From assembly GCA_030998015.1 (NCBI GenBank), contig JARWMV010000043.1, forward strand, positions 57,434 through 121,433: 64,000 nt of DNA. Reading direction: 5' to 3'. The notes under the pieces were generated by a model. It saw nothing but the letters and a program-made list of their open reading frames with translations, did not search any database and had not been told where the DNA came from. How positions within the stretch are numbered: position 1 is the first letter of the stretch; each line of letters starts with the position of its first letter. A program made the position numbers and the translations under genes. This stretch comes from Ceratorhiza oryzae-sativae. Lineage: Eukaryota > Basidiomycota > Agaricomycetes > Cantharellales > Ceratobasidiaceae. Positions 14,177 to 29,734 of the stretch are shown here, piece by piece.

Positions 14177-14812
14177 TGTTGAGACCCCTCTGTCCCCTTG
14201 TCTCTGTTGATTCCTTAAGTAGGGGCTATGTTGTCAGTGTTAATTTGCAGTATATATTGATAGTATTTATGTAGTATGTATGGATGATCCCTGTGGTTGA
14301 CAAGATAAAGCAAGCTGGGGTCCACAGTCTTGCTTTTGATGAGTTATATACCCTTCAAGGTATGAGTCAGACTGTTCTGCAGTCCACAGTATCTTATGGG
14401 TATGTGTGGTGTAAACAAGTATTAAGTAAGTTGCTCTTAGGGTTGTTGTAGCTCCAAACCTTATAGAGCCACATGAGGTCTGAGGGTCACATGATTTAAG
14501 CACTGAGGTCACATGACAACTCACTCCTTGCTCCAAGTTACAATGGAGAGAATTGCAGGAGTGAGTTAGGTAACCACTGTAAGTGCCAAGGTCATGTGGC
14601 AGTCATAAGTGCCAGGATCACATGACAACTTGCTCCTCACTCCAAGTTACAATGGAGAGAATTGCAGGAGCAAGTTAGATAACCACTGTAAGCACCAGGA
14701 TAAGCACTGAGGTCAGATGACTATGTTTATAGCTTGTTTGACTCAGGAGAAATGCTATAAACTAAAGGATAATTCTCTTGTCACATTATGGCTGTCTGTG
14801 CAGGTCATAACA
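14177..14812 (+). mobile_element. Solo LTR family 3, inserted in element B
   Basis: TGTTGAGACCCC...GGTCATAACA, 636 bp, flanked by the exact duplication ATTTG (14,172-14,176 and 14,813-14,817). Removing it restores the pol frame. It contains internal repeats of the type ACAATGGAGAGAATTGCAGG. Relatives lie at 27,072-27,411 (fragment), 28,792-29,467 and 50,630-51,450. Confidence 0.9.
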
Positions 14813-15374: not shown

Positions 15375-15897
15375 CTTACCACATGTGACTACCAGAAAAT
15401 TACTCTATGCATCCAGTAATCAACATTGTTCATCCAGAGAAATATCAATCATCCTCTGAATTCAAGGATCATACGTTTACTCCACCAAAACTTGAAATGG
15501 ACCAAGATGATAACATATATGAAGTTGAAAGGATTATTGACCAAGGCTGGGAAAAGCATGGAAGAAAAAGTATCTGCCTCTATTGCATTAGATGGCAAGG
15601 ATATGGACCAGATGAAGATAGCTGGATTCCAGCCTCATGCCTACACAATGCCCCTGAAGTACTGAAGCAATGGAATCAACTAGCCACCCTCAATAAAGGA
15701 GCAGCCACTTGAAGCAAGCACCAATGCAGATAGCAGCCCATCACTTAGCTAAGTGCCCATCCATGCAGCTGGCACAGCTAAAGCTCCAGCAAGCACAGTC
15801 AATGTACAGTCTAAAGCACAGCTTACATGCAGTATATACACAGCCTATGCACAGTTTAGCACAGCCAGAACTGCAGTAATTGCCACAACACTCATAG

Positions 15898-15966: not shown

Positions 15967-16945
15967 ATGAACTCCACTGGCTGCCTTGAATCCTATTCTG
16001 TCTGCTTCCTGACTCTCTCCAACATCCCCCTGTCAGAGCTTTCAGTCAGCAAGGCCTCTGCTGGTATGGACCACATCTGTAAGGTCTACAAGACAAATGT
16101 CAGCTCCTACCATAATGAGCAAGACTATGGGATCAATTTCTGCTCCAATATCCTTTGTTGCCAATTCCACCTTGGCCCTGATATCATGATGGTCCAGCAT
16201 GATGGCATCAATCTGTTCTACATATGCTCCACTGTCTGAGGCACTCTTGCTGATGCCATGTACACTTGCTATACCCTTGCAGCAGACATTGTCAAGAAGG
16301 CAAATTGGATGAAGATATCCTACAACAATTACAGTGTCACCAACAAGCCAGATGTGTTCCAGCAACTTGAAAACCATGGTTACTGCAACCTTCAGCCCCA
16401 GTTTATGTAGCCCTATACAGCAATTACTCCATGGCATACTGTTCCTTGGGCAATGTCCTTGCTTTCATCAACACCACCCAATGCTGGGCTCTGTGTGTAA
16501 TGAACTGGCTTCAATACTTTGCCATAAGGATGTGATGCTGATATTCTGGCATTCTGGCATCAAGGGTAACTCAATTGCATCAGCTTATAAATCAGTGCTT
16601 CTACAATTCAGTTACCCTTGATGCCAGAATGCCAGAATATCAGCATCACATCCTTACTTTGCCATCCATGAAGAAGTCTATCAGGCTCCTCATTGCCTTT
16701 TCAAGTGTCCAAACCCTATCCATGACACTCCTACTCATGAGCTATACAGTCCTTCTACAGGTCACCCAGCTCTAGCTGCCCCTGCCCCATCTGCATCTAC
16801 TGTGGATGCCCAAGACAGGCCTGCCTCACCAGCAACTATGTCTAAGTCTGCTAAGATCAAGGCATGGCTCACAAGTATCCCTGCTCCCATTCCAGAATTT
16901 GATGCCATCTTTGCCAAGATCAACCACCCTGAATGCTGGGAACAT
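15967..16945 (+). pseudogene. Unknown gene U1, 5' part (split by MITE and by the DUF6589/RecQ transposon)
   Basis: An ATG-started ORF of 90 codons ends at a TGA. The protein-like reading then continues with frame changes to 16,945. It includes text open on both sides of the MITE at 16,526-16,655 (NWLQ before, YFAIHEEVYQAPH after) and the block KIKAWLTSIPAPIPEFDAI. The remainder of the gene lies at 22,673-23,106, after the transposon. The product would be ~480 residues, partly Pro/Ala/Ser-rich in the middle. I recognise no domain. It is the first of three co-oriented unknown genes, each with its own TATA box. Confidence 0.5.
16526..16655. mobile_element. 130-bp MITE with perfect inverted repeats and 10-bp duplication
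   Basis: AAGGATGTGATGCTGATATT is repeated inverted at the other end; the arms are about 45 bases without mismatch and then continue imperfectly. ACTTTGCCAT flanks it on both sides (16,516-16,525 and 16,656-16,665). A 9-11 bp duplication is typical of Mutator-like elements. Removing the insert and one duplication restores an open frame of U1. Confidence 0.85.
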
Positions 16946-17149
16946 CTAGACTCCTACCCAGTCTCTCCTTGTACATCATGTGCTTTTAAGGGTTGTTTAT
17001 GTGAGCACATTCATACTTGGATGACTGGCACCAATGTCATATTTGCATATGTTGTCAGAATCCACCACCTGTCACAACCTCCACTTTTGTCACCCAGAGA
17101 GTCACTTTTGCACAGTTCACATGATCTCCTCCAGTCATCTTCTGGTCAC
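16946..17149 (+). repeat. Left 204-bp terminal inverted repeat of the DUF6589/RecQ element
   Basis: Pairs with 22,202-22,405 along its whole length with no gap. Mismatches are almost all TG on one side against CA on the other, as left when the same CpG decays on opposite strands. Confidence 0.85.
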
Positions 17150-17170
17150 AGCAAGATCTTTGCCACATGC

Positions 17171-19897
17171 TAGAATGCTTTCAAGGGAAAAGATTGATTG
17201 TATCTCTGGTATACTGCAAGCAGAGCAAGTGGTACTCTTAGACTTAATATGTGCATACATCCAGGGTGCTTCCAATTTTATTCCATTTACTGGCTGTACA
17301 TACACTATTCAGGAAGAAATTTGCAGCACCACTGCTTTAATCAAAGTTCTATCATGCTTGACTTGCAATCCTGACACATCACCAATCATTGCTTGCATGG
17401 CTTGGAACATAACCCTTTGATCCTGTGTTCTGGAATTGAGCAAAATACTGTTGCTGTCAACAGGTTTCCACTTCAACAATGGACATGCTACTGCAGAACA
17501 ATTTCATCAATTCTCCACTCTCAAAATGGCAAAAATGTTTGAGAATACTTGCCCAACTCTTTGGAGTTTCTTTTGAATCTTGCTCAACATGGCAACAGTA
17601 AAGAATGTTGCCAAATCAATGAATAAAAATGGGGACTATTGGACCAAACTCACATACCAGGAAAGTCCTACACATATTGATCCTGAGCCACAAACATCTC
17701 AGACAACCTCTGATATCCCAGTGGATATGCCAGAGGAAGATTGGGGTGATGAATTACTTGAAGAGGTCTGGGTTGATATTGACAAAATCTATGGCAACAA
17801 GACAGAAAGCAACATACCAGGCACTTCAATTGATTTGTGTTGCAAGCAAAGGTGCATGGCTGGGTTTAAATGACAGATGGAAAGGACAAAACTTGTAAGT
17901 TGCTCAGACTAGCACTGTAGAATTGATTTACTTACATTATTCTCAAAGTGTCAAATTGCAATGTTCAATATCTGTATGAACAACAGTAATATGCACTGCA
18001 ATGCACTTCAAGTGGTTGTTGGCTTATTCATGCATTCATCTAACATACCTGAGAAAGTGGTGGAGCTCCTGGCACATATGGGCCTATGTGTCACCTGCTC
18101 TTCAATCAATTGAATGATTGAGCATATGTCAGGTGATGCTGAGAAAACACTCAAGGAGCGATTACCTACACTGCTTGTTGTGCTTGGACACAATAACCTG
18201 GAGATTTTGTTTGATACTGAACAGCCTACTGTGACAAATCCTGGCAAACTTGTCAGTTTGACAACAGTTGCATGCATACTGCTGTGCCCAGGAAGCGCCA
18301 AGGAGGACTTACAAGTGTTGAAAGAGCTTTGGGCACACTCACAATTTAATCCAGATAGAACAAAACCACCAATCCTCCCTTTGCATCAGCAATTGATGAG
18401 CTTGATGGCAAAATCAGGCTGCCCTCCTGATGATCTGTGCAGTGTTGAATCACTTTTTGCTTGGCATGTGCAACAAATGCTGCTCAGGAATAATGTCAAA
18501 ACCATTTCATTAGATCTCAAGGAAACTTTTAGAAAACAGTACCTTGGCTTACCCAAATTTCACAAACAAGTCCCCCACAAGAAAACCATAAAACAGCCAA
18601 TGTGTTTGATGAATATAAGTGTCTCAAGTACCTCCAGGAATGCTGCAGCAATTGATAACATGCTCAAACAAGGCAGGATCACTACTGAAGGCCTTGAGGA
18701 GCATGTGGTACTGCTAGATGGTGATTTAGGCACCAGCAAAAAGCTCAATAGCTTGCAAGAAAGCCAAGCGATAGAAAAAAATGCTCAAGATCACCTACAA
18801 TTATTAGTTTTTGTCATGTCATCAGATGGTTTCATACTCACATGGCAATGATCAACTCACTTTGGTGTTTCTGGATCCTACCTGAACAAACTTGTGCTGG
18901 CCATATAATACATCCTCAGTCCATCCTCCAACTTTGCACAATTTTGCAACCTAGAGATATAGGAAAGATCAGTTCAAACCCAGGTTTTCAAATGGCTCAC
19001 AGCTTAATCAAACATCTAGTGCTTGCTCTGGTGGCCAATGCTGGGTGCTTGCTTGTTAAACAAGAATATGGCATTGCACTCAGTGAATGGAATCCAACTT
19101 GGGAGCAAGTGAACAAAATGTTGAGGAAGCTGTTTGAAGACTTTATCACACCTATCATGTATTGCCCAGCTACCAGGAGCATGGCAGACAACATTCAAGA
19201 CCAAATGCAACTGTTTCTTCAAAACAGTATACATTACCTGGCAATTACTCAGGCATCTTGGTATGGCAATGTTGGCTGAATGGAGGAGCTTTTACCTGAG
19301 TGGGTTTATATCTGGAAACAAACTGGGAAACATAAGTGCACTGTTAACTACTCTTGATTCTTGGCAAACCTGGATAAGGGCTGGCCACCTAGATTTGCTG
19401 AGGTTGTTCAGCACAATTGGCTAGTGAACCCAACAGGCAAGGTCAATGGATTTCAAGGAGTCAACTGGTTAATATAGCAAAGTAATTACTTCACAAAATG
19501 TCTGTATTCAGGATTGGGATCAAATTGCACACTTCAAAACCTCATTAAACAGCTGGTTTTGATCAATGTGTTCCAGGCAACATATGGTATTATCAATAGA
19601 AACTTCTACCTTACAGGAAAAACAGTGTGGCATCCTCCACCTATTGTCAAGACTGGATTAGCAATGCTACAGCAATACATCAAGAATGAGGGAATGAACT
19701 CACATCACCAAGGTCAAACACTATCCACCACTCCAACAAATGCATACACCACTGCTGTAAAATCTGCACTCAGAAACCTGGACAAGTTTTGGGACATTGA
19801 AGAGGACAAGGGCAATGATGATGCAGAAGAGGTGGAGGGGGAAGCACAGGCAGAGGATGGCATGTTAAGCACCAAGGATTTGGGTGTTGACAAGTAG
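17171..19897 (+). pseudogene. DUF6589-like protein (decayed)
   Basis: Protein-like text starts ~20 bases inside the left terminal repeat and ends at TAG 19,895-19,897, about 900 codons, broken by stops and frame changes near 17,418, 17,577, 17,870, 18,110, 18,850 and 19,280. The best block is 18,114-18,851, with LGHNNLEILFDTEQPTVTNPG, TTVACILLCPG, FRKQYLGLPKFHKQ, NINVSST-like and HVVLLDGDLGT. It continues in WRLW/TCAGH-, SNPGFQMAHSLIKHLVLA- and TGKANGF-type stretches. From memory of the family this fits DUF6589, common in multicopy Agaricomycete genes; the role is unknown. The C-terminus is acidic. A Pfam search would settle the assignment. Confidence 0.6.
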
Positions 19898-19959
19898 AGA
19901 TTTTTGAGAGTTGGAAAATGTTGCAGAAGAAAAACTGGGTGCTGTTGTATGTGAAAGTG

Positions 19960-22156
19960 ATGCAATTTTTGCCTTGCATTTCCAGGATGCTCCTGTGCAG
20001 TATAATTGCACATAAGCTCATGAAGCTTATGCTCCAAATAAATAATGATGCACATACTTGTATGGCCCACCTTGTGACAGGCATTGCATTGTGGAGGAGC
20101 CTGTGGCTTTGTTTGACAGACAGTAAGCTGAGCAGTTGGCATAAGGTTGACAGAAGGTGGTGGGTGAGAACTGTGAACAATGGCAAGGACCTTGGCACCA
20201 TTCTTGGGCATGTACAACCACTTGAGCTCTTCCTCAAATTCTCCAATGGTGGGAATGAGCTGAAGACAAGCTAATTGAACAATACATTTGATTTGCTCAC
20301 CATCAATGATACCAAGGCCTCCAACTGGGTGATAAGGGCCCCATTTTGCAACTGCTGTATTATCTTGCTAGAGATACAGCACCTCTTCAAGCCTGTGATC
20401 TTTGTCAGTCAACTTGCTAGAATCTTCTTTGTTTACAAGGGTAGGGGCAGGTTGTCAGGGAGCTCATTTGGGCTTATCCATGTTGTGGTAGAGGAAGTTG
20501 GCTACAGAAGGGTTGCATATGTTGCAGCACTCTGCACAAGGTGTAGGAAGGGGGCAGCAATGAGAACAACAGTAATCTGAGTGATCATCTAAAAAAGGTG
20601 TGAGAATCAGACAACAACTGAAACTAATGTAACTGAAGCAGTGTACCTGTCAGGACTGCAGGGTTGGCAAAGAACAGGTTTCCTGCCTTGCATCAACACT
20701 TTGGACCATCAAAATGGAGACTGCCATTGACAAATAAGTCAATAACTGGCTCCAGATCATCAGCACACATTCTCCTTTGTTTCTTGAACTTTGATTTGTC
20801 AGTTTTGGTGGTAGAGGTTGTGGTTTGCTTAACATTGCCTGACTGACTTTCTTAGGAAGGTTCAGGAGTACCCTCTGATACACAGGGCTGCTTGGTGCTG
20901 TGTGCCAATGCTGCATCTGGGTCTTCTGGTGTGCATTTCTTGCTTGGCCCTATCTTCTTTTCCTTTTGTCAGAACCTAGATTCAAAGAAGACAATATCTT
21001 TGCCTCTCCTATGCTTGGCTCTTGCAGCTCATCCATTGCATTGACAAATGGTAGGATAATTTTGGGCTAATTGATATTTTATAACATAGTTGACATCTGG
21101 AATATCAATGCCCTGCTCATACATTAGAGATGTTAAACAAACCAACAAATAAACTCACCATTCCTGCAATGTCTGTGCAAACAATACCAAAAAGTTGACC
21201 ACTCTGGAGCCTTTCCATTGTGCTCTCATGAAACCCTCAAGTCATCTCAGCATGTACCCAAACAATCCAATCACATTCCTCTTGTGTGAGTCAGTCTCAA
21301 AGGAATTTTGCAGCCTGCTCACAGTTTTTCTTAGTTTGCATGAATAGCATAAATTTTGGTGGAGGGGGTGATCCAGGTGTACAATCAAGAGGAACCAGGA
21401 ATGCAATGTCATGTAGGGAGGCAAATGAGTGCTTCATAGCCTGAGCTATCAAAGTGACATTTGAGCAGTCATTTGATTGACAGAATACAACCATATCATA
21501 CAGGTTGAGTGCATGTTGAAGATCAACAACCATGTCTGGAGAGAGAGTTGCAGTGAGAGCAAGGAATGTGGCACCACAAAATAGATGTACAACATAGTGG
21601 AGCCTTTGATATGCTGGTTGAAAATTATCCCATTCCAGTACACAGTGAGCTTTGTCAAAAATGATTTGATCGATGAGATTCCAAAAACTTGGCACATCCC
21701 ACAAGTATTTTTGGAAACAAGGATCCTCATCAATATACTTGGGTGAAGCAATCACCAGCTGATACACTCCATTGGAGATGTCCTGTAGTATAAGGTTGTT
21801 AAATCCTGTAATATGAATCACAGATAAGAATTGCTAACCTTGAAGGACTGGTCAGATGCAGTTTTGGAAGTCAGGTTGATTGCCTGAATGCCAAGTTTCT
21901 TGAGTGCTGGATGAGCTGCATGCTGACTCCCAAGCAGCTGAAGTGGACTAATAAGAATACACACACCCAAGCGTTGCCAGATAAATGGCATCAAGAAGCT
22001 GAGAGTTTTCCCTGATCCAGTTGGAGACACAAGCACAGAGTGGACACCACAAAGCTGGAGAGAGCATATCTGAGTTTGGAATTTGCAAGGCCAATCTCCA
22101 AACACATCCTGCATTTTTTCAGCAATTTCAGCAGCAGAAAGAATGGACTCAGACAT
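19960..22156 (-). pseudogene. RecQ-like DEAD/H-box DNA helicase (decayed)
   Basis: The start ATG at 22,156 lies 46 bases inside the right terminal repeat. On the minus strand the order is motif I VSPTGSGKT (~22,010), motif Ia region ILISPLQLLG, motif II IIFDKAHCVLEW (DEAH changed to DKAH, ~21,660), motif III ALTATLSP (~21,540), then motifs V/VI FGIVCTDIAG and GIDIPDVNYVIKYQL (~21,090-21,200). A basic linker follows, then a Cys-rich tail (CCSHCCPLPTPCAECCNIC, ~20,545) and CNACHKVGHTSMC (~20,070). RecQ helicases unwind 3'-5' using ATP. Introns are likely near 21,820, 21,130 and 20,610. In-frame stops and the DKAH change show it is not functional here. Confidence 0.7.
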
Positions 22157-22201
22157 GAGTCTAGGGGATAAATTAATACAAAAAGTGATAGATACAAGAG
22201 A

Positions 22202-22405
22202 GTGACAAATGGATGATCAGAGGAGATCACATGAACTGTGCAAAAGTGACTCTCTGGGTGACAAAAGTGGAGATTCTGACAGGTGGCAGATTCTGACAAC
22301 ATATGCAAATATGACATTGGTGCCAGTTGTCTGAATATGAACATGCTCATATAAACAACCCTTAAAAGCATGTGATGTACAAGGAGAGACTGGGTAGGAG
22401 TCTAG
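22202..22405 (-). repeat. Right 204-bp terminal inverted repeat of the DUF6589/RecQ element
   Basis: Inverted copy of 16,946-17,149, ending GGAGTCTAG. It lies directly before the helicase start codon, so it must also hold that gene's promoter; the left copy would do the same for the DUF6589-like gene. Confidence 0.85.
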
Positions 22406-22411
22406 GAACAT

Positions 22412-22670
22412 CCAAATTTTTTGGATGCACAACATGGATGTTTTGACCATTTCCTACATTCTGTCTAGCTTGATTTTTTAAATGTTCTATCCCAATCACT
22501 CAAAAATTGGACAAAATGCACATTTTCAATATGTGTATATTGAGGTCATAATGGTATAGAATACATTTGTTTCACATAGTACAGCTCCTCTTAAGTATCT
22601 ATCAGCTGAAAGATCATCACAATCAGTCAAAATGGACATACTGTCCATTTTTTTTAACTTGTCCAAAAAC
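22412..22670. mobile_element. Possible small MITE
   Basis: CCAAATTTTTTGGA at the left faces TCCAAAAACATTGG at the right end. The ~260 bases between are A+T-rich without ORFs. The segment separates the transposon's duplication from the resumption of U1. The boundaries are approximate. Confidence 0.4.
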
Positions 22671-22672
22671 AT

Positions 22673-23106
22673 TGGATGTTTGGAGTGTGAAGAGCCAGAG
22701 TGACTTGATTGACAATATTCCCCTATCTGAGTTCCTTGGTGCACCTCTGGCACCTCCACCATCTTGGGTTGACACCCCTATCTTTGATTACAACAAGTGG
22801 TGTGCTTTAGGACCAGACCTCTTGGGAATTCCTCTTTCAGAATCCCCAGAACCACACCCTGCATCAATTGAGCTTCCCATCACCCTGGTTCCATGAGGTT
22901 CATCAGCCTCAAGCTCCAGCTCTGCCTCATGGCAATGGATCAACCCCCAGGATAAGCTGGTAGAGTTCTTGAAGGAATTATGGGATTCTTATCAGCCTCG
23001 AGGAGATAATGGCTTCTGCATGTTTTACAATCTTGTAATGGCTAAGCACCAGCCTTTGATTCAATGTTTCCTTGATAACATTACTGATATCTGCAAATCT
23101 TCCTGA
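22673..23106 (+). pseudogene. Unknown gene U1, 3' part
   Basis: The reading continues from ...PECWEH at 16,945 with VWSVKSQSDL, then PLSEFLGAPLAPPPSW, a TGA near 22,894, and a final WQWINPQDKLVEFLKELWDS block, ending at TGA 23,104-23,106. No domain is recognised. The junction supports U1 having been one gene before the transposon and MITE arrived. Confidence 0.5.
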
Positions 23107-28184: not shown

Positions 28185-29734
28185 TGTTAAATATATGTGT
28201 TTGTATCAGTTGTGTAGGGATGTAATTAATAGCAAGGACTACTGCATAGTTGGTGGCCATGAGTAACAAGTATATGTAACAAGTAGCCATTGTGAGCCTA
28301 GTTAAAGGTACAATAGGTGTGAGTTCTGTTCCTGGTTCTACTATTGTAATTGCAGATGGTTTCCTCATACAAGACATCTACTGGCATATGTCCATTGTAT
28401 AGTCCTATGAGTTGTATGGTGTGGGAGTATCTCTGAAGTGTTGGCCTCCCTTACATATTGGTCTTGCAGATCTTGCATGCTATGGCCAGGCTACCTGGTC
28501 ATTGTTGGGACTTACCAGGCCTAGTGACATGGACTGGCAAACCTGCATAAGGTGGTTGCTATGGGAGGATGCACAGAGTAGCTAACTGCATGGGCTAATG
28601 ACAGAGCTGAGATCAATGTAGCCAGAGTGGTGCTCAGCAATGTCTCTGGCTTGCTTGTGCAAAGAATATAAGAGATGAGGGAAAGAGAGGAAAGGATGAT
28701 ATTCAACAGCCTAGGAGGCCCTCCTTATATATGTTTTGGAGACAACAAATACAGGGTCTACATGCTGCTGCACAGTGACTATGGACTGCTGTGTTATGAC
28801 CTGCACAGACAGCCATAACATAACAAGAGAATTAGCCAATAATTTATAGCATTTTATCCTAAGTCAAACAAGCTATAAACAAGCTCAAGTGACCTTGGTG
28901 CTTAGCCTAGTGCTTATGGTGGTTATCTAACTTGCTCCTGCAATTCTCTCCATTGTAACTTGGAGTGAGGAGCAAGTTATAACATGACCCTGGCACTTAA
29001 CACATCACATGACCTTGGTGCTTACAGTGGTTACCTAACTTGCTCCTGCAATTCTCTCCATTGTAACTTGGAGCAAGGAGCAAGTTATCAGATGACCTCA
29101 GTGCTTAAATCACATGACCCTGGGGCCTTGCACAGCTCTATAAGATTTGCAGCTGCAACAACCCTAAGAGCAACTTACATAAGGGTTATAGACAATTACA
29201 TGAGGTATCCACACTGTTTACTCATGACCAGACTACTCACATGACTTGTAAACACTGTGGACTGTGGAAAGGTATGACTCACACCTTGTGGGATATATAA
29301 GAAATAAGGAGCAAGCTGGAGGACCTCAGCTTGCTTTATCTTGTCCACCACAGGGACCTTGACCATACACTGTAGAATAGAGACACACAATAGATAGAAA
29401 TAGACAATACAAACAATGTAGCCACTACTTAAGGAAGACCAAAGGATGGTAACAGGGGGTCTCAACATGCTGCACAGTTGCTGCAGGCTACCCATTGCAG
29501 TAACTGCAGGCTATGCTTGGACTGCATATGCTGCAGACTGCACAGACTCCATGGCTGCGTTCTGCGGCTTGCTATGGTGGGAACAAGTGCAAGCAAGACT
29601 GTTATCCAACTGTTTTGAGTGGGTATATGTGTAGTCAGAAAAATAGGAAAAATATAGGAATATTACTACAAGGTTGCACAATGACTTGACTACTTGAGTT
29701 GGTGGTTTCCTACATATTCTTCACATATATCACA
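28185..29734 (-). mobile_element. Solo LTR family 6 (right copy), interrupted by family 3 LTR
   Basis: Flanked by an exact duplication CCAGT (28,180-28,184 and 29,735-29,739). Without the inner LTR it is ~870 bp and forms an inverted pair with 24,610-27,071. Reading frames seen here on the minus strand (to 28,377) recur at 26,879-27,091 on the plus strand, purely because the LTR is repeated. Confidence 0.85.
28792..29467 (-). mobile_element. Solo LTR family 3 nested in family 6 LTR
   Basis: TGTTATGACC...GGTCTCAACA on the plus strand, 676 bp, with exact duplication TGCTG (28,787-28,791 and 29,468-29,472). It is the most recent insertion at this place. Confidence 0.9.

What the first reader, a model, noticed from the sequence alone, without database searches (positions are those of the whole stretch)
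16946..22405. Undescribed two-gene transposon: DUF6589-like protein plus RecQ-like helicase inside 204-bp inverted repeats
The sequence shows exact ends (CTAGACTCC...GGAGTCTAG), two 204-base inverted repeats with no indel, and an exact 6-bp flanking repeat GAACAT. The element splits an otherwise continuous unknown gene. The two genes face inward, each starting just inside a terminal repeat. DUF6589-type proteins and RecQ-like helicases are both multicopy in Agaricomycetes without explanation; this layout suggests they are parts of one mobile element. No recognised transposase is present, so DUF6589 may be a new transposase or recombinase, with the helicase as partner. A 6-bp duplication is uncommon among DNA transposons.
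Basis: partly seen in the sequence, partly recalled or inferred. Interest (0 to 1): 0.93.

Follow-up and report, generated by a model that had tools for sequence, protein, structure and literature searches.

The report
Decayed helicase-carrying fungal DNA transposon
A broken copy of a two-gene jumping DNA element in a mushroom-group fungus, whose protein of unknown function (DUF6589) looks by predicted shape and conserved residues like a cut-and-paste transposase travelling with a RecQ-like helicase, probably a relative of the AcademH transposons described in 2020.

Summary
The element is real, but its edges and duplication need correcting. Comparison with 10 further copies in the same genome places it at 16947-22404, ends TAGACTCC...GGAGTCTA, with an 8-bp target duplication GGAACATC. 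The 6 bp came from CTAG-shaped ends. Of 11 copies with these ends, 10 have exact 8- or 9-bp duplications and one 8 bp with a mismatch. Empty sites exist for three copies, the window's included. The gene pairing holds: 22 of 26 DUF6589 loci in this genome have a related RecQ-like helicase within 10 kb (about 1.5% expected per locus), 9 convergent, 13 divergent. DUF6589 is most likely a DDE transposase: in two AlphaFold models the best structural neighbours are Hermes, P element, ISCth4, RAG1 and Transib; D, D and E are near-invariant; coding regions show purifying selection. The window copy is dead. Helicase-encoding DDE transposons of fungi are known (AcademH, KolobokH). KolobokH fails on duplication and ends; AcademH (9-10 bp duplications, helicase, Basidiomycota) fits best, but no AcademH sequence was available to prove it. 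New here: a likely identity for DUF6589 and its two gene layouts.

The parts
16939..16946 (.). left target-site duplication GGAACATC
   Evidence: exact 8-bp match with 22405-22412; uninterrupted sites read across it once
16947..17149 (+). left terminal inverted repeat, starting TAGACTCCTACCCAGTCT
   Evidence: arms 89% complementary; same ends in other copies
17175..19894 (+). DUF6589 (predicted DDE-fold transposase) pseudogene: one frame change near 18806-18818 and 8 in-frame stops in the alignment to P0014 (62-68% identity); an intron was not modelled and may hold some of the stops
20053..22141 (-). RecQ-like DEAD/Helicase_C helicase pseudogene, in several frames, 6 in-frame stops in the pieces aligned to P0038; introns not modelled
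22202..22404 (-). right terminal inverted repeat, ending GGAGTCTA
   Evidence: 23 differences from the left arm over 203 positions, 20 of them transitions
22405..22412 (.). right target-site duplication GGAACATC
16927..16946 (+). first 20 bp of the ~302-bp repeat (MITE-like) into which the element inserted
   Evidence: alignment with 5 other copies
22413..22694 (+). remaining 282 bp of that repeat

Best explanation
This is a dead copy of a cut-and-paste DNA transposon with two genes: a DDE (RNase-H-fold) transposase, DUF6589, and a RecQ-like helicase. Inferred mechanism: the transposase binds the ~200-bp inverted repeats, cuts at the TAGACTCC ends, and joins them to target DNA with an 8-9 bp stagger that host repair fills in. 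The helicase probably opens or processes the ends or helps repair the gap; its role is inference only. The element most likely belongs to, or is a close sister of, the AcademH lineage of helicase-encoding transposons. The window copy jumped into a MITE-like repeat and has since decayed, with loss of nearly all CpG sites.
Confidence: 0.74

Rival explanations
1. The same kind of two-gene DDE transposon, but not AcademH: a separate superfamily or sister lineage with 8-9 bp duplications that acquired a RecQ-like helicase on its own.
For: Duplications of 8 bp in 5 of 11 TAGACTCC-type elements (one with a mismatch), outside the reported 9-10 bp; the fold neighbours hAT, P and IS256-type make 8-9 bp duplications (recalled; fold); two opposite gene layouts.
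Against: Duplications of 9 bp in 6 of 11 and in 2 of 2 divergent-layout elements with both ends read overlap AcademH; AcademH is reported from Basidiomycota with DEAD and Helicase_C domains, as found here.
Confidence: 0.2
2. A KolobokH transposon (RecQ helicase, fungi).
For: KolobokH encodes a RecQ helicase and has been found only in fungi (PMC9587614).
Against: Kolobok duplicates TTAA and ends 5'-RR..YY-3'; here 0 of 13 duplications are TTAA and ends are 5'-TA or CA.
Confidence: 0.01
3. A hAT- or P-superfamily transposon that picked up a helicase.
For: Hermes and P element transposases are among the closest solved folds; 8-bp duplications in some copies.
Against: Pfam reports only DUF6589 for the transposase of the C232 copy and for P0005; the conserved histidine between second D and E stands in GxxH in 26 of 30 rows with a letter, not C/DxxH (position matched by order only); 6 of 11 duplications are 9 bp.
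Confidence: 0.04
4. Two unrelated host genes that happen to lie between inverted repeats.
For: Only that this single copy is broken.
Against: 10 elements with both genes, both ends and a duplication, empty sites, and 22 of 26 pairings against about 1.5% expected per locus.
Confidence: 0.01

Closest known systems
AcademH lineage of Academ DNA transposons (Kojima 2020, Mob DNA 11:15; not held, known here from citing papers)
   Same: Helicase-encoding DDE transposon, found in fungi including Basidiomycota at low copy number, with long duplications (9-10 bp reported; 9 bp in 6 of 11 here).
   Different: 8-bp duplications in 5 of 11 copies here; relation of DUF6589 to the Academ transposase untested; gene layout and termini of AcademH not seen.
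KolobokH
   Same: DDE transposon with a RecQ helicase in fungi.
   Different: TTAA duplications and 5'-RR ends there; 8-9 bp and TA/CA ends here.
hAT (Hermes) and P element transposases
   Same: RNase H fold with a large helical insertion before the last acidic residue (prediction); 8-bp duplications in part of the copies.
   Different: No helicase gene in those families (recalled), no hAT or P domain reported here, GxxH instead of C/DxxH.
Pfam PF20231 (DUF6589)
   Same: The transposase gene is a member of this family of unknown function.
   Different: Pfam gives no function; no held paper names it.

Membership tests
AcademH (Academ superfamily) | Academ-type DDD/E transposase by sequence | not testable with these tools
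   The defining paper and its sequences are not held; only fold and D, D, E residues could be examined.
AcademH (Academ superfamily) | encodes a helicase with DEAD and Helicase_C domains | tested here: met
   Helicase_C E 1e-15 and DEAD E 2.6e-11 in the full-length relative P0038; DEAD E 3.4e-7 in a piece of the window copy; solved relatives of the C79 reading are a DNA helicase (7a8r, E 3e-21) and RecQ1 (E 8e-21).
AcademH (Academ superfamily) | target-site duplication of 9 or 10 bp | tested here: inconclusive
   TAGACTCC-type elements: 9 bp in 6 of 11, 8 bp in 5 of 11 (one with a mismatch); divergent-layout elements with both ends read: 9 bp in 2 of 2.
AcademH (Academ superfamily) | terminal sequence motif of the lineage | not tested
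   No description of AcademH termini was found in the passages read.
KolobokH | TTAA target-site duplication | tested here: not met
   0 of 11 TAGACTCC-type and 0 of 2 divergent-layout elements.
KolobokH | termini 5'-RR and YY-3' | tested here: not met
   Termini are 5'-TA or CA; definition from PMC9587614.
KolobokH | RecQ helicase | tested here: met
hAT | 8-bp target-site duplication | tested here: inconclusive
   8 bp in 5 of 11 only.
hAT | C/DxxH motif between second D and E | tested here: inconclusive
   A conserved H (29 of 30) stands in GxxH in 26 of 30 rows with a letter; that it is the same position was judged by order along the chain, not by superposition.
hAT | hAT family domain by Pfam | tested here: not met
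   Pfam scans up to E 0.1 report only DUF6589 for P0005 and for the C232 copy.
DDE (RNase H-fold) transposase | RNase H-like fold | tested here: met
   By prediction only: two models; DDE transposases or RAG1 fill rows 1-33 and 1-31, followed in the latter by Prp8 RNase H-like domains.
DDE (RNase H-fold) transposase | three conserved acidic residues | tested here: met
   D 43/45, D 42/43, E 28/29 of rows with a letter; 18 of 47 rows have a gap at the E; geometry not measured.
DDE (RNase H-fold) transposase | transposition activity | not testable with these tools
   Only insertion footprints (duplications, empty sites) were seen.

The most novel reading that the evidence does not exclude
DUF6589 elements are a transposase superfamily of their own, distinct from Academ: RNase H fold with GxxH in place of C/DxxH, 8-9 bp duplications, regularly paired with a RecQ-like helicase in two opposite gene layouts, spread through Agaricomycetes and filed so far only as proteins of unknown function.
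Probability: 0.2. Interest if true: 0.65.

Novelty: new member of a known kind. Interest (0 to 1): 0.42.

Why it matters
It gives a probable function to a Pfam family of unknown function whose members are listed as ordinary hypothetical proteins in many Agaricomycete genomes: DUF6589 proteins and the RecQ-like helicases beside them would be transposon genes, so gene counts and 'multicopy RecQ' observations in these fungi need correcting. It also offers well-preserved copies (C83, C232, C7, inverted repeats 98-99% identical) for asking what a helicase does in cut-and-paste transposition.

Tried and rejected
6-bp duplication: rejected. Scans of viral contigs and of bacterial/archaeal genomes with a DUF6589 piece found no relative. 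Kojima 2020 was sought by DOI and by PMC id, a review by DOI: not held. End-pattern search with up to 3 mismatches: 126 matches against 131 for the control pattern, so no enrichment at that laxity; the listing is cut and gives no control for the 0-1 mismatch matches that I used. A first dN/dS script stopped with an error after its three transposase lines; the helicase lines were run. Several dS values are saturated, so pS and pN are quoted. L041 (C3:185150 locus): only a weak 74-nt inverted match and no match to the queries. L046 (C233:2513661 locus): no inverted repeats found. Of the 13 divergent-layout loci, nine were seen only as ~4-kb pieces or coordinates and their ends were not read; of the C235 copy L053 only one end was read. 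In one search the helicase places were taken with six added; other rows overlapping the same places were left out. Absence of a family from the structure lists is not used as evidence.
Full report
What is there. The window lies on contig C43 of a 48.8-Mb, 253-contig genome. The closest named proteins are from Ceratobasidium (84% identity), so the host is probably a Ceratobasidiaceae fungus (Cantharellales); this is inference. Arms 16946-17149 and 22202-22405 are 204 nt, ungapped, 89% complementary. Between them lie DUF6589 pieces on + (Pfam 4e-15, 3e-12) and DEAD-helicase pieces on - (3.4e-7, and 0.0017 below the cut-off). Against relatives, DUF6589 reads 17175-19894 with one frame change and 8 stops; the helicase reads 22141-20053 with 6 stops in the aligned pieces. 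Introns were not modelled, so some stops may lie in introns. The copy is broken.

Exact ends. The repeat, the end pattern and the two proteins led to other copies in the same genome. Ten elements have both genes and both ends (C43 window, C7, C3, C244, C241, C83, C232, C79, C9, C240; genes). In the pieces fetched, C51 shows only a left end and C11 one damaged end. With ends taken as TAGACTCC..GGAGTCTA (CAGACTCC..GGAGTCTG on C3), duplications are exact 8 bp in 4 (C43, C83, C232, C240), exact 9 bp in 5 (C7, C3, C244, C79, C9), and 8 bp with one mismatch in C241. A 1,624-bp deletion derivative on C233, with part of DUF6589 and no helicase match, has a 9-bp duplication. Random abutting positions gave exact 8 or 9 in 69 of 2,000,000. 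The self-comparison found inverted repeats of about 176-257 nt in seven of the elements, which are 5.5-6.2 kb long. C79, C9 and C240 are longer, apparently through other DNA inserted in them.

Empty sites. Right of the window element, 282 bp match 38 other places, whole or in part (40 of 54 candidates scored). Five copies were fetched and all five run uninterrupted across the insertion point. The duplicated octamer reads GGAACATC in three (C30, C244, C240); it differs by one base in two (C253 AGAACATC, C236 GGAACTTC). So the element sits 20 bp inside a ~302-bp repeat. The sequence around that repeat has a paralogue at C241:70780-71240 without repeat or element. The C240 element's joined flanks match an uninterrupted stretch on C233 at 104 of 110 bases, no gaps. 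The C241 element's flanks, compared by eye, equal a 27-bp stretch present four times, uninterrupted, in the window.

Two genes, one element. The 51 DUF6589 matches fall into 26 loci (merged by hand). An element-type helicase lies within 10 kb of 22 of 26. The exceptions: C9, where the helicase is 17 kb off but inside the same pair of ends; C55, near a contig start, where a divergent helicase would fall off the contig (inference); C51, truncated; C3:185150, a fragment. Expectation by chance is about 1.5% per locus. Nine pairs are convergent (the window's kind) and 13 divergent. Of 37 helicase clusters in the pooled list, 15 have no DUF6589 within 10 kb (C9's among them); some are probably cellular helicases or fragments, not checked. 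Three divergent-layout copies on C235 (two) and C10 are 99.7-99.9% alike; the two with both ends read have ends TAGTCTCT..AGAGACTA and 9-bp duplications GATCTCAAG and GGCAAAACT. Their helicase is only weakly recognised by Pfam (Helicase_C 1.2e-4, DEAD 0.0021, both below the cut-offs) but carries DEAH and QRIGR motifs. In other genomes, consecutive locus tags pair the two genes in Ceratobasidium sp. 395, sp. 414 and C. theobromae (noticed by eye); their ends were not available.

Helicase. P0038 (598 aa) has Helicase_C E 1e-15 and DEAD E 2.6e-11. The C79 reading matches a DNA helicase (7a8r, E 3e-21) and RecQ1 (E 8e-21) best, RecQ5, WRN, RecQ and BLM less well. Pfam reported no RQC or RecQ zinc domain in the four helicases scanned.

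How it works. Shown: ends, duplications, empty sites, gene pairing, selection. Inferred from predicted fold and residues: DDE chemistry. Inferred with less support: the helicase acts during transposition, for example opening ends or helping gap repair. A citing paper says that the difference in duplication length between AcademH and AcademX seems related to the helicase and the nuclease that they encode (passage in PMC10045372).

Known or new. Read as passages only: PMC10799480, PMC10045372, PMC12210899, PMC8290104, PMC12730594, PMC10294476, PMC9970103; of PMC9587614 passages and the Background section. Other papers were seen only in search listings. Kojima 2020 itself was not seen. AcademH: helicase, 9-10 bp duplications, Basidiomycota among hosts. 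KolobokH: RecQ, but TTAA. The element is filed as probably AcademH, without proof by sequence. No held paper contains DUF6589, in a library that lacks most subscription journals and the defining paper.

Decay. CpG observed/expected is 0.02 in the window element against 0.90, 0.91 and 0.96 in the C7, C83 and C232 copies; C241 (0.06), C3 (0.25) and C244 (0.59) are in between. The window from 8 to 40 kb is CpG-poor throughout (0.01-0.08 per 8-kb block), so the copy decayed with its neighbourhood, by CpG loss (methylation or a RIP-like process, inference).

Changes at checking.

Noticed in passing
window 16526-16655: A 130-bp near-perfect hairpin (60-nt arms, 93%) flanked by an 11-nt direct repeat TACTTTGCCAT; absent from the C241 paralogue: a MITE with a ~10-bp duplication.
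   Followed up: partly
window 16927-16946 and 22413-22694: A ~302-bp repeat matched at 38 other places in this genome, here with CCA on both sides; some fetched copies also show short flanking repeats by eye.
   Followed up: partly
window 8001-40000: CpG observed/expected 0.01-0.08 per 8-kb block, rising to 0.18, 0.50 and 0.96 in the last three blocks: a CpG-depleted zone grading into normal DNA.
   Followed up: partly
window 14535-14670 and 28935-29069: The same 27-bp stretch twice on + and twice on -, 14 kb apart: possibly the arms of a larger inverted repeat or element.
   Followed up: no
window 15540-15700: Reads by eye like a chromodomain of a Ty3/gypsy-type element; not searched.
   Followed up: no
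L054 2219-8921, L055 2286-8982, L053: A second, divergent-layout kind of DUF6589-helicase element, about 6.7 kb, ends TAGTCTCT..AGAGACTA, 9-bp duplications, copies 99.7-99.9% alike, so probably recently active.
   Followed up: partly
L062 35-1658 (C233:1117124-1118747): A 1,624-bp nonautonomous deletion derivative with a 9-bp duplication; an apparent second copy on C240 is interrupted by the C240 two-gene element, one family inserted in another.
   Followed up: partly
G000:C9:161814-183166: A two-gene element stretched to about 21 kb, apparently by DNA inserted between and within its genes.
   Followed up: no
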